Shown here piece by piece: positions 28,172 through 38,856 of a DNA stretch of 64,000 bases. The position numbers and the translations under genes were made by a program. This stretch comes from Candidatus Zixiibacteriota bacterium (GTDB lineage Bacteria > Zixibacteria > MSB-5A5 > GN15 > FEB-12). The first letter of the stretch is position 1; every line of letters begins with the position of its first letter. The stretch is from contig JAJRXM010000007.1 in NCBI GenBank assembly GCA_024276275.1, forward strand, positions 1-64,000. The letters are read 5' to 3'. Below the pieces are notes generated by a model. That model made no database searches, was not told the origin of the DNA, and saw only the letters and a program-made list of their open reading frames with translations.

Positions 28172-28237
28172 ATGCAACAACGAAGTAAACAGTTTTTTGT
28201 CTTGATACTTTTTGGCAGCACGAGAGTTAATATATGA
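28172..28237 (+). CDS. Possible 21-residue leader ORF coupled to the next gene
   Basis: ATG at 28172 sits behind a strong GGAGGG (28162-28167). The frame encodes MQQRSKQFFVLILFGSTRVN plus Ile and ends in a TGA that overlaps the ATG of the dockerin gene (ATGA at 28234-28237). The downstream gene has only a weak ribosome site of its own. Translation coupling by a leader peptide would explain the arrangement; a decayed N-terminus is the alternative. Confidence 0.35.
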   Translation: MQQRSKQFFVLILFGSTRVNI

Positions 28238-29040
28238 ATTTCCTATTTAAAATATTATCAGCCTGCCTTATTATGTTTCCGACAGTCGGGTTTGGACAGA
28301 ACGGTCTGTCTGTAAGTTCTGTTGATGGATTGCAAAACGGGAAAATTACTCCCGATAATGAAATTGTCTTTCATATCCGTTTGTCAAATAATTCAGGTAA
28401 AACTATATCTACTGTTGACCACGGATTTAGAATATATCTTTCAAATAATTCTGAAATACTTTCTGCTCAATTCCAACCTGCCGTTTTAGACGCATTTGAT
28501 ATTACCGGTTTTACATGGCATCAACGGTTTGACGGTTTTCATGTCTATTCGAATGATAACTCTGATGGCCTAGGGGCTGATACGGTAAGTTTTAAAGCTC
28601 TATCTTCAACGAATATCGTCGGTTTTGAAAATCAGTTTGATCAGGGTATTTTGTTAATATATACCGGGGCGATGGAAGGATTTGTCGGTGATTCCTTGTG
28701 TATTGATTCATGCTTTGTACCGTCCTCGGGTTTATGGAGATGGTCCTATGAAAATGATTCGCTGATTGATACAAATATCCCTTGGTCAGGACCTCATTGT
28801 TTTGAAATTACAGAAGGTTGTTGTGTCGGAATTCGTGGTAATGTTGATAATTCATCTGATAACATTATAGATGTATCCGATTTAGAATTATTAGTCACCT
28901 ACATGTTTCTAGAGGGTGCTCCGCCTGCCTGTTCAAAAGAAGCAGATATCAACGGTGATACTATTTTGGATATTTCCGATTTACTGGCATTGGTAGGATA
29001 TATGTTCTTAGGTGGAGTTTTACCTGCTAATTGTCAATAG
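28234..29040 (+). CDS. Secreted protein with cohesin-like N-terminus and dockerin-like C-terminus
   Basis: A 268-residue exported protein. The signal peptide ends near GFGQ. Residues about 20-195 form a beta domain (FHIRLSNNSGKTISTVDHGF ... GFENQFDQGILLIYTG) of the kind that precedes dockerins in this lineage. Residues about 200-268 hold two dockerin-like loops: GNVDNSSDNIIDVSDLELLV and ADINGDTILDISDLLALV, each followed by a YMF..G segment. The CCVGIRGNVD start of the dockerin is typical for Zixibacteria-like proteins. Similar architecture occurs at 43703-44632. Function unknown. Confidence 0.82.
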   Translation: MNFLFKILSACLIMFPTVGFGQNGLSVSSVDGLQNGKITPDNEIVFHIRLSNNSGKTISTVDHGFRIYLSNNSEILSAQFQPAVLDAFDITGFTWHQRFDGFHVYSNDNSDGLGADTVSFKALSSTNIVGFENQFDQGILLIYTGAMEGFVGDSLCIDSCFVPSSGLWRWSYENDSLIDTNIPWSGPHCFEITEGCCVGIRGNVDNSSDNIIDVSDLELLVTYMFLEGAPPACSKEADINGDTILDISDLLALVGYMFLGGVLPANCQ

Positions 29041-32507: not shown

Positions 32508-32762
32508 CTAATTATGTGAAGTCAAATATGCTATTATATCAGCTTTTTTTTCCTCGGATAATTTTGCTTTTTCTCCATATCTGCCAACGAAATACGGCCA
32601 CTCGGCATCTATTTTCATCGTTGCTTTTGGGAGTATATGGCAAGTTTGACAATTCGCCTTAAATGCAATCTCGCCGGGTGAACGCATTTCACCGGAGGTA
32701 TTCTTTTTTTGACAAGACGTAAATACAATTACACAAAGTAACAGAAGAGAAAGACGTAACAT
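32508..32762 (-). CDS. Small monoheme c-type cytochrome lipoprotein
   Basis: An 84-residue protein. The signal peptide ends in FTSC (Cys17), probably a lipidation site. A CQTCH heme-binding motif lies at residues 38-42, and Met at about 49 is a possible axial ligand. The C-terminal helix (SEEKKADIIAYLTSHN) is typical for class I cytochromes c. Expected location: periplasm, anchored to a membrane. Its ATG overlaps the stop codon of the outer-membrane-like gene upstream (TAATG), so the two are translated together. Confidence 0.85.
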   Translation of the reverse strand: MLRLSLLLLCVIVFTSCQKKNTSGEMRSPGEIAFKANCQTCHILPKATMKIDAEWPYFVGRYGEKAKLSEEKKADIIAYLTSHN

Positions 32763-33493
32763 TAGAGTCCTACTCCCATCAACAGACGAAACTGGGTGTC
32801 ATCCGATTTATCATTTAGCCCAAACAGAAGACCGAATGTATAATATGTATGACCGGTAGCATAAGAGATTGTCGGACCGATAGAAGATTTAAACTTATTG
32901 TCTAAAGAATTATCAGAGTAAAAGTATTGACGGGATACCGATTCAAATCCAAATGAAAATTTAAAAGTCGGAGCATACGATAGTCCAAAATCAAGACCAA
33001 GTTCCTGATATGAAGCATATCCATCTGCCCAGAGATATTCGTGTACCGGATTAATAGAAATGTTTAGTTTATTGAAATCTTTACCGACCAATAATTTTGT
33101 CTCTATTTTATTCTGACTACTTTTGTTCTCAAGTTTCCGTTTGTATTCAATATAGAATACCGGGTCAAATGGAACTTCCCCAGCTAATCCAAAGCGATAA
33201 CGACCTCTGAACTGGAACGCATCCCACTTAATAGGTGAACCTTCTGTTTGTGTAAAAAATTGATAGACAGAAAAATCAAATTTTGGGCTGATACCCTGTT
33301 CAATCTCAAAACGATATTCCCACTCGTCAGATTTACCGCTGTTTTGTTTTCCGGTTTGATAAAATTCAAATTCGGTCGCATCTGGGGCAATTATATGTGT
33401 CTGATATGCCCAGGCATATTTTCTTCGGTCGGCCTGTACCGATGGTACAGCTATAACTATTATAAGGGCTATTAGCATTAACTTTTGAAACAT
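32762..33493 (-). CDS. Predicted outer-membrane beta-barrel protein
   Basis: A 243-residue protein with a signal peptide (MFQKLMLIALIIVIAVPSVQA). The mature part is a run of amphipathic strands alternating aromatic and polar residues (FEFYQTGKQ, WEYRFEIEQGISPKFDFSVY, FQFRGRYRFGL, PVFYIEYKRKL, TYYTFGLLFGL) and ends FRLLMGVGL, as expected for an 8- to 12-stranded barrel. No family name can be given. It is co-transcribed with a monoheme cytochrome from a near-consensus promoter with a Fur-like palindrome, so a role in metal or electron transfer is possible. Confidence 0.75.
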   Translation of the reverse strand: MFQKLMLIALIIVIAVPSVQADRRKYAWAYQTHIIAPDATEFEFYQTGKQNSGKSDEWEYRFEIEQGISPKFDFSVYQFFTQTEGSPIKWDAFQFRGRYRFGLAGEVPFDPVFYIEYKRKLENKSSQNKIETKLLVGKDFNKLNISINPVHEYLWADGYASYQELGLDFGLSYAPTFKFSFGFESVSRQYFYSDNSLDNKFKSSIGPTISYATGHTYYTFGLLFGLNDKSDDTQFRLLMGVGL

Positions 33494-33520
33494 ATTAAAT
33501 CTCCTTTATTGAATTCACGT

Positions 33521-33545
33521 AATGAAAATGAAATTCATTTTCATT
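33521..33545. promoter_or_regulatory. 25-bp Fur-like palindrome in the leader of the OMP/cytochrome operon
   Basis: AATGAAAATGAA, a central A, then TTCATTTTCATT form a perfect palindrome. It contains TGAAAAT and ATTTTCA half-sites as in Fur-family boxes. It lies about 8 to 32 bases downstream of the predicted transcription start, a position suited to repression. Confidence 0.55.
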
Positions 33546-33559
33546 TAGGTATAGATGAG

Positions 33560-33689: not shown

Positions 33690-33770
33690 AAAAAAAACCC
33701 AAGCAGATTGCGGTCTGCCTGGGTGGACGATATTAGGTAATCCACAGAAAGAGTAACACTTTCCGATTGC
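33690..33770 (-). ncRNA. Candidate small RNA, about 81 nt, with consensus promoter and intrinsic terminator
   Basis: The minus strand carries a consensus-like promoter at 33805-33777, no ribosome site and no open frame after it. Three stem-loops follow: GAAAG/CTTTC (33763-33747), GTGGA/TCCAC (33745-33723) and a terminator. The terminator is a 10-base-pair stem, CCCAGGCAGA with TCTGCTTGGG, with loop CCGCAA (33723-33698) and eight U residues (33697-33690). I do not recognise a known RNA family. A plus-strand gene starts 118 bases away and is divergent, so this is not a leader. Confidence 0.72.
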
Positions 33771-33776
33771 ACTAAA

Positions 33777-33805
33777 ATAATACCATATAATCAACATTTT
33801 GTCAA
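33777..33805 (-). promoter_or_regulatory. Consensus-like sigma70 promoter of the candidate small RNA
   Basis: TTGACA (33805-33800), an exact 17-base spacer and TATTAT (33782-33777) on the minus strand. This is among the best promoter matches in the window. Confidence 0.82.
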
Positions 33806-33887
33806 GAGGAAAATTCAATTGCAATTACGTTATAATACACTATTTTCTTACTGCTTTACCAATCAATCATTTCTGAAAGGCAACAGA

Positions 33888-35178: not shown

Positions 35179-38100
35179 TTGAAATTACAGCGCTTTTTCA
35201 CTCGAGAAGGTGAATCGCCATATAGTCGAATAAACTTTGTCAAAAGAAAATCCGAAATTAAAAATCCGGACGGCTCGACTGTATTTTTGCTCGAAGATAT
35301 CGAAGTACCCGAAAATTGGACTCAGGTCGCAATTGATATTTTGGCGCAAAAGTATTTTCGCAAAGCAGGAGTTCCTCTTTTTGATGAAAAGGGAAAACCG
35401 ATACTTGATGAAGACGGTAACCAAAAAACCGGCGGTGAAACCGATGCTAAACAAATATTTCATCGTTTAGCCGGTTGCTGGAGACATTGGGGAGAAAATC
35501 ATAACTACTTTGAAACCGAAGATGATGCCCAAATATTTTATGATGAACTGGTCTATATGCTCGCATCACAAATTGCTGCTCCAAATTCACCACAATGGTT
35601 TAATACCGGACTGCATTATGCCTACGGTATCTCCGGTGTTTCTCAAGGACATTATTTTGTAGACCCGGAATCACACACTTTACAACAAGCCAAAAACGCC
35701 TATGAACATCCGCAACCTCATGCCTGTTTTATTCAGTCCGTAGCTGATGATTTAGTAAACGAAGGCGGCATTATGGATTTGTGGGTTCGGGAAGCACGAC
35801 TCTTTAAATATGGGTCGGGAACCGGTTCTAACTTTTCACAAATTAGAGGTTCGAAAGAACCTTTATCAGGCGGCGGCAATTCATCAGGGCTGATGTCGTT
35901 CTTGCGCATTGGAGATCGCGCAGCCGGCGCCATTAAATCAGGAGGTACAACAAGACGTGCCGCAAAAATGGTCTGTCTTGATTTAGACCATCCTGATATT
36001 TTAGAATTTATTGATTGGAAAGTTATCGAAGAACAAAAAGTTGCCGCATTGGTAACAGGCTCTAAAGTAATCAAACAACAACTCAAAAACATATTTGATA
36101 CCGCCCGTATTTCAGGTGATAACGGGAATTCGGTATATGAGACCAATCCCGAAAAAAACAGTAAACTAAAATCTGCCTTGCGAACCGCAAAACAGTTGAT
36201 GGTTCCGCAATCGTATATCAAAAAAGTTCTCGATTTAGCTTCACACGGTATCGGCGAAATTAATTTTATTGATTTAGATACAAACTGGGATTCAGAAGCA
36301 TACTTAACGGTTTCCGGTCAAAACTCAAACAACTCGGTTCGTATACCGAATGAGTTTTTCGAAAAACTGAACAATGGCGAAAACTGGGAATTGAAAAACC
36401 GTACAGACGGTTCGGTTGCCCAAGAAATTCCTGCCTCTGAAATGTTCGATAAAATCTGTCACTCTGCATGGTCATGTGCCGATCCGGGAGTACAGTATGA
36501 TACTACTATCAATGAATGGCATACTTGTCCGACAGACGGTAATATCAACGCATCCAACCCTTGTTCTGAATATATGTTCTTAGATGATACCGCTTGTAAC
36601 TTGGCATCTATAAATTTAATTAAATTTTTAAAAGACGACGGTTCTTTTGATGTTGACGGTTATCTTCATGCAATCCGTATTTGGACTATTGTTCTTGAAG
36701 TTTCAGTCTTGATGGCATCGTTCCCGTCAAAACCTATCGCTCAAAAATCGTATGACTACCGCACACTCGGTTTAGGCTATGCCAATCTCGGTACCCTGCT
36801 TATGCGTATGGGGATTCCGTATGATTCATCGGAAGCATATTCTTGGTGCGGTGTTCTCGCCGGACTTTTAACAGGCGAATCGTATGTAACTTCTGCCGAG
36901 ATGTCCAAAGAACTTGGTGCATTCCCGGCCTTCTATAGAAACCGTGATGCTATGCTTAAAGTAATGCGGAATCATCGACGGGCTGCCTATAACGCAGACA
37001 AATCTGAATATGAAGATTTAACGGTCAAACCGACCGGAATCAATCCAAATTATATTCCTGAAAATTTAGTAACAAAAGTTAGAAAAATTTGGGATAACGC
37101 CGTTGAACTAGGCGAAGTTTACGGTTACCGTAATGCTCAATCAACAGTTATTGCTCCAACAGGGACAATCGGACTATTGATGGATTGCGACACGACCGGT
37201 ATCGAACCTGATTTTTCATTAGTAAAGTTCAAAAAATTGGCAGGCGGCGGATATTTTAAAATTATTAACAACTCCGTTCCTGTAGCCTTACAAAAAATAG
37301 GTTACACCGAACAAGAGATTGAAGAAATTATTTTATATGCAACCGGTCATAAAACTCTCAAACAAGCACCGTTTATTAATCATGAATCTCTACAGGCAAA
37401 AGGGTTCGGTGATGAAGAGATTGAGAGTCTTGAAGAACAACTTGCCAATGCATTTGATATTTCATTTGTCTTTAACAAATTTACTTTGGGCGAAGAATTT
37501 TTAAAAGATACTTTAGGTTTTTCCGAAGACAGCTATGATGATTGGAGTTTTAATCTCTTAGCAGAATTAGGATTTACAAAAGAACAAATAGAGGTAGCCA
37601 ACGAATATGTCTGCGGTACTATGACTATCGAGGGAGCCCCTCATATAAAAAATAAAGACCTTCCGATTTTTGACTGTGCTAATAAGTGCGGAAAAAAAGG
37701 CAAACGGTTTATTAAATTTGAATCTCATATTCGTATGATGGCGGCTGCTCAGCCGTTTATTTCCGGTGCGATTTCGAAAACTATTAATATGCCTGCCGAA
37801 GCATCGATTGATGATGTCAAAAAAGCTTACCGCATGTCATGGGAAACTATGACAAAAGCGATTGCATTATATCGTGACGGGTCAAAACTCAGTCAACCGT
37901 TAAATGCTGCTTTGTTTGATGACGATGATGTTGATGATGAACCGTTGACAGTTTCAAACGTCTCTGAGAAAATGGCACAAAAAGTTATATATCGTTATAT
38001 TGCCAAACGGAGAAAAATGCCGAACCGACGGGCAGGCTATACACAAAAGGCTGTTGTCGGTGGACATAAGTTGTATCTTCGTACCGGTGATTATTCCGAC

Positions 38101-38856
38101 GGAACTCTGGGAGAAATTTTCCTCGATATGCATCGTGAAGGTGCCGCTTTTCGTTCAATGATGAACTCATTTGCAATTGCAGTATCGCTTGGACTCCAAC
38201 ATGGTGTACCGCTTGAGGAATATGTCGAAGCATTTTTATTTAGTAGGTTTGAACCGAACGGAATGGTAACCGGTAACAAATCTATTAAAATGGCTACTTC
38301 GATTATTGACTATATTTTCCGCGAGCTTGCTATAACGTATCTCGGTCGAAATGATCTTGCCCATGTTTCAGAGGAAGATTTACTCGGTGATACTATTGGT
38401 AAACCGTCTGATGAGACTATGGAATTTGTCGAAGAAGAACATCAGAAATCAACTTCGGGTAATGCGCAAACAGGTGTTCGTAAAAAATCTGATATTCAAA
38501 CTACGCATATTTCAAGAATCAATAAAATTGTACAGCCCGATAGTCCTACTACACAAGATAATGAAAATGGAATTTCATATAAAAGTGAAACAGGAGAAAT
38601 AACAGATGGTAACCAGATGGAGTCTAAGATTGCGACTCAAGACACTGCAAAGACCGCGGCGTCCCTTGGTGTTGCATCAGCGACAGGAAAAAAAATCGCA
38701 GATGACAGAGGACAAAAACTCTTTGAAGAAATTAGAGAAGCCAGACTAAAAGGTTACGAGGGTGATATGTGTTCAGACTGTGGACAGTTTACCATGGTTC
38801 GGAACGGCACCTGTTTAAAATGTGATACATGCGGAGCAACCTCAGGCTGTTCATAA
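35179..38856 (+). CDS. nrdJ: Vitamin B12-dependent (class II) ribonucleoside-diphosphate reductase
   Basis: Reduces ribonucleotides to deoxyribonucleotides with adenosylcobalamin as radical source. The 1225-residue protein has the TTG start fixed by AGGAGG six bases upstream. Seen: [21 protein letters not shown]-like loop [13 protein letters not shown], the catalytic loop [42 protein letters not shown], and a C-terminal TSCPD region ([19 protein letters not shown]). The protein ends in a Cys-rich redox or zinc tail (CSDCGQF ... [14 protein letters not shown]). It is monocistronic, with paired NrdR boxes upstream and a terminator downstream. Confidence 0.97.

What the first reader, a model, noticed from the sequence alone, without database searches (positions are those of the whole stretch)
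33690..33805. Orphan small RNA gene with a consensus-like promoter and ideal terminator
TTGACA-N17-TATTAT on the minus strand leads into about 80 bases with no ribosome site or frame, three stem-loops, and a 10-bp GC-rich stem plus U8. It ends about 100 bases before the OMP/cytochrome promoter on the same strand. The exposed loop UUACCUAAUAUCG between GTGGA/TCCAC arms could pair with target messages. I know no family that matches. A Fur-like box on the next operon makes a metal- or stress-linked role conceivable.
Basis: seen in the sequence. Interest (0 to 1): 0.65.

Follow-up and report, generated by a model that had tools for sequence, protein, structure and literature searches.

The report
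Ultraconserved small RNA of Zixibacteria
The window holds a real small-RNA gene about 80 bases long: in one family of an uncultured bacterial phylum 46 of its bases never change, relatives occur in two sister families, Rfam has no match for it, and its job is not yet known.

Summary
A minus-strand transcription unit at 33690-33823 has an A/T-rich tract, TTGACA-N17-TATTAT, about 80 nt of RNA and an 11-bp terminator stem with U8. It is far more than a lucky promoter/terminator pair. The same RNA is present, usually once, in 49 of 54 genomes of the family and 29 of 29 good ones. Its first 46 nt are identical in 39 distinct copies from about 30 genera. Third codon positions of neighbouring pgsA average only 41% identity, and the SRP RNA keeps 39 of 102 columns. 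Diverged copies occur in two sister families of the same order (5/7 and 3/4 genomes), each with a TTGAC promoter and terminator. No copy was found elsewhere in the phylum or in viral contigs. An exact scan of about 85,000 species' genomes hit 40 records, titled Zixiibacteriota/GN15 or vague or probably mislabelled. Rfam has no match. It is not a pgsA leader, because pgsA has its own promoter and the neighbours vary. Sequence blocks (CGGAAAG, CCUnnnAUCGUC, CCCAG) are conserved while the upstream fold differs between families. Best reading: an abundant, constitutive, trans-acting RNA. Its target (RNA or protein) is unidentified.

The parts
33808..33823 (-). A/T-rich tract upstream of -35, UP-element-like
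   Evidence: T-run at -4..-7 and A/T positions at -15..-18 relative to TTGACA conserved in 53 copies
33800..33805 (-). -35 box TTGACA
   Evidence: TTGACA in 44 and TTGACT in 2 of 46 copies, always 34-35 nt before the conserved GCAA
33777..33782 (-). -10 box TATTAT with TG before it
33690..33770 (-). small RNA, about 81 nt (5' end inferred from promoter spacing and from where conservation begins)
33725..33770 (-). invariant 46-nt core GCAATCGGAAAGTGTTACTCTTTCTGTGGATTACCTAATATCGTCC
   Evidence: identical in 39 distinct copies of the family; next base is A or G
33745..33765 (-). hairpin 1 (CGGAAAG/CUUUCUG, loop UGUUACU)
   Evidence: fold; pairs never vary within the family; rearranged in sister families
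33723..33745 (-). small hairpin with exposed loop UUACCUAAUAUCG; CCU...AUCGUC is kept in all three families
33690..33724 (-). intrinsic terminator; stem shows standard-pair changes across genomes

Best explanation
It is a stand-alone gene for an abundant small RNA made from a strong constitutive promoter and ended by an intrinsic terminator. It is inherited vertically in one order of Zixibacteria. Shown: independent promoter and terminator, extreme sequence constraint, usually single copy, loose synteny, no conserved reading frame. Inferred: high abundance and constitutive expression (from the promoter alone), and action in trans by sequence recognition, because primary-sequence blocks (CGGAAAG, CCUnnnAUCGUC, CCCAG) stay fixed while the fold around them differs between families. 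The most likely form is base pairing of the exposed CCUAAUAUCGUC stretch (and perhaps the 5' GCAAUCGG) with partner RNA(s), done without Hfq, which was not found in the window's genome.
For: Promoter, terminator and fold. Single hit in own genome; 49/54 family genomes, 29/29 good ones. Core 46/46 invariant in 39 distinct copies, against SRP RNA with 39/102 invariant columns and pgsA with 3/195 invariant third positions. Diverged homologues with TTGAC promoters and terminators in two sister families. Downstream pgsA has its own TTGAC promoter close before its ATG and the neighbours change. CCU...AUCGUC is mainly unpaired in the window-family and f2 models, and AUCGUC in the f3 models. No Hfq in own genome.
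Against: No transcript data were available. In 2.4 Mb of a relative's genome, complements of its 7-mers are not enriched at 1,926 translation starts (425 seen, 409.5 expected). OMP leaders pair no better than shuffled ones; pgsA leaders only weakly (mean p 0.29, 5 of 28 below 0.05), possibly because of the non-transcribed promoter. In f3 the CCU itself is predicted paired. Invariance of a whole 46-nt stretch, including stems, is more than a single seed needs.
Confidence: 0.5

Rival explanations
1. A protein-binding small RNA (decoy or RNP component) whose invariant sequence is a binding site, for example for CsrA through its GGA motifs, or for another protein of this order.
For: CsrA is present in 50/54 family genomes and 29/29 good ones. 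The CGGAAAG block is invariant in all three families. Sequence is fixed although folds differ.
Against: Only two GGA motifs, both within predicted stems in the window's family; the second is GGG in L109. CsrA decoys usually carry several GGA loops (general knowledge).
Confidence: 0.3
2. A cis-acting leader or attenuator of the downstream operon (pgsA-pgpA, or OMP-cytochrome).
For: pgsA-pgpA lies downstream in many copies, including those of the two sister families.
Against: pgsA and OMP have their own promoters after the terminator. The downstream gene is unrelated in several genomes, e.g. an ArsR-like regulator in L067 and L096 (read from the sequence), while the RNA core stays identical.
Confidence: 0.06
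3. A 6S-like RNA that binds RNA polymerase in place of the 6S RNA not detected in this family.
For: No 6S match in 54 family genomes; promoter of the kind seen at abundant stable RNAs.
Against: About 80 nt with no long interrupted hairpin or central bubble; a divergent 6S could be missed by the Rfam model.
Confidence: 0.05
4. A short leader peptide, with GUG-UUA-CUC-UUU-CUG-UGG-AUU-ACC-UAA as its frame.
For: The frame is open in the window's family after a GGAAA (sequence).
Against: Third codon positions never vary. In one sister family the frame stops after three codons and in the other the stop or start is gone.
Confidence: 0.02

Closest known systems
RsaE/RoxS-type and other intergenic trans-acting sRNAs (recalled, not tested)
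   Same: Own promoter, about 80-110 nt, intrinsic terminator, deeply conserved unpaired pyrimidine-containing stretch able to face AGG sites
   Different: No sequence relation known; no target shown; the whole 46-nt 5' part is fixed, not just a seed
6S RNA (RF00013)
   Same: Small RNA with a strong promoter, presumed stable
   Different: Half the length, different fold, no model match
NsiR1 (RF02399)
   Same: Weak sub-threshold hit, 29.6 bits against a gathering score of 39
   Different: Match lies mainly on the terminator hairpin; different phylum
CsrB/RsmX-type CsrA decoys
   Same: GGA motifs in a small RNA; CsrA present in the host
   Different: Two GGA only, in stems, one not conserved

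Membership tests
Any Rfam 15 family | score at or above gathering threshold | tested here: not met
   0 matches in the window; best sub-threshold hit NsiR1; nothing on the RNA in sister-family loci up to E=1
6S RNA | covariance-model match, long hairpin with central bubble | tested here: not met
SRP RNA | RF00169 match at this locus | tested here: not met
   SRP RNA lies elsewhere, G000:C98
Hfq-dependent sRNA | Hfq encoded in the genome | tested here: not met
   PF17209 absent from own genome, 95% complete
CsrA decoy (CsrB/RsmX) | several GGA motifs in hairpin loops | tested here: not met
   two GGA, in stems, one lost in L109
CsrA decoy (CsrB/RsmX) | CsrA encoded in the same genomes | tested here: met
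   29/29 good genomes
Fur-controlled RyhB-like sRNA | Fur box at the sRNA promoter | tested here: not met
   no conserved palindrome in 60 nt upstream of -35 in 53 copies
Stand-alone trans-acting sRNA | own promoter and terminator, variable neighbours | tested here: met
Stand-alone trans-acting sRNA | transcript and regulated targets | not testable with these tools
   no expression data; TIR test negative

The most novel reading that the evidence does not exclude
An order-specific housekeeping RNA of Zixibacteria with a core function outside the known classes, for example a ribosome- or polymerase-associated RNA, explaining why 46 nt are frozen more tightly than the SRP RNA.
Probability: 0.2. 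Interest if true: 0.8.

Novelty: new member of a known kind. Interest (0 to 1): 0.55.

Why it matters
Full-text searches for small RNA together with the phylum's names found no relevant paper. This RNA is near-universal in its family, occurs in two sister families and is more constrained than the SRP RNA of the same genomes, so it is probably important and abundant. It gives a ready covariance model and a concrete transcript to seek in metatranscriptomes, and it shows that a lineage-wide RNA gene of an uncultured phylum is missing from Rfam.

Tried and rejected
Rfam at gathering and permissive thresholds. Leader of pgsA or OMP. Short peptide. CsrA decoy. 6S substitute. Metal control. Pairing with OMP and pgsA leaders; the nrdJ leader test found no usable starts. 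Genome-scale 7-mer enrichment at translation starts. Complementarity to E. coli rRNA: longest run 10, within the shuffled range. An anti-Shine-Dalgarno mimic idea (GGAUUACCU against the 16S end GGAUCACCU) fails in family f2, which has GGAUUCUUCCU. Phage carriage: no viral contig. Hits in G126 and G098 and the weak hits were not accepted: those examined are generic terminators or look like coding sequence, the rest are near the noise.

Full report
The feature. On the minus strand TTGACA (33805-33800), a 17-nt spacer with TG, and TATTAT (33782-33777) lead into GCAATCGGAAAGTGTTACTCTTTCTGTGGATTACCTAATATCGTCCACCCAGGCAGACCGCAATCTGCTTGGGTTTTTTTT, ending at 33690. The promoter shares the best score and the terminator is the best of the 6 kb scanned. 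The RNA folds 3.5 sd better than dinucleotide shuffles, though the terminator accounts for much of that.

Conservation. The own genome has one copy. All four genomes of the genus and 49 of 54 of the family carry it, 29 of 29 of the good ones. Of the five family genomes without it, three also lack a pgsA match and the other two have pgsA near a contig end, so assembly gaps are a sufficient explanation. Over 39 distinct copies the first 46 nt are identical and position 47 is A or G. In the same family the SRP RNA has 39 invariant columns of 102 and 79% mean identity. The neighbouring pgsA has 3 of 195 invariant third positions, 41% mean identity there, and no invariant run above 5 nt. The terminator stem keeps pairing with G-U/G-C switches and a few two-sided changes; since the upper helices never vary, covariation says nothing about them.

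Range. A covariance model found diverged copies in family f3 (3 of 4 genomes) and, after adding these, in f2 (5 of 7) of the same order. The f2 and f3 genomes without it also gave no pgsA match. Family f4 of the same order has none, although pgsA and its upstream region are readable in most genomes searched, and no other family of the phylum gave an acceptable hit. No viral contig carries it. Rfam has no family for it.

Transcription unit. All 46 copies examined have TTGAC (44 TTGACA), 34-35 nt before GCAA, placing +1 at or next to the first conserved base. Upstream lies a T-run after an A/T stretch, UP-element-like, and no operator. pgsA-pgpA lies downstream in many copies of all three families, in 14 loci with the OMP and small cytochrome-like genes between, but pgsA starts from its own TTGAC promoter and in several genomes the downstream gene is different. 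It is therefore a stand-alone gene with an old address.

Fold and sequence. In f1 CGGAAAG pairs with CUUUCUG. In f3 it pairs with the CUUUC of ACCUUUC further on. In f2 it sits in the loop of GCAAC/GUUGC. CGGAAAG, CCUnnnAUCGUC and CCCAG nevertheless stay fixed. Constraint on sequence rather than on the upstream fold points to recognition by an RNA or a protein.

Function. Hfq was not found in the own genome, 6S was not detected in the family, and CsrA is general. Complementary 7-mers are not enriched at translation starts in 2.4 Mb of G020; OMP leaders do not pair better than shuffles and pgsA leaders only slightly. These tests are weak: one partial genome, rough start calls, no accessibility term. 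I favour a trans-acting pairing RNA (0.5) over a protein-binding RNA (0.3). That it is a real RNA gene with its own promoter and terminator I hold at about 0.95; that it is transcribed was not observed here.

Literature. Full-text searches for the phylum's names with small RNA gave one unrelated paper and none; a broader search showed nothing relevant.

Noticed in passing
window 33520-33550: A Fur-like palindrome (AATGAAAATGAATTTCATTTTCATT) between promoter and start of the OMP gene is kept, in varied form, upstream of the OMP orthologue in 13 genomes: a probable metal-regulated OMP/small cytochrome-like operon.
   Followed up: partly
window 32508-33493: OMP (243 aa) and small haem-motif (CQTCH) lipoprotein-like protein (84 aa) have no Pfam match and form a cassette between the sRNA and pgsA in 14 loci.
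   Followed up: partly
window 35179-38856: A class II (B12-dependent) ribonucleotide reductase gene lies on the other side of the sRNA in many family genomes, in either orientation.
   Followed up: partly
G011:C275:3608-3672: A weak second match (74% over 60 nt, E=0.0014) to the promoter and 5' half of the sRNA; possible decayed paralogue.
   Followed up: no
window 28234-29040: Secreted protein with dockerin-like repeats (GDVNxDxxxxISDL) of the kind I recall as common in Zixibacteria.
   Followed up: no
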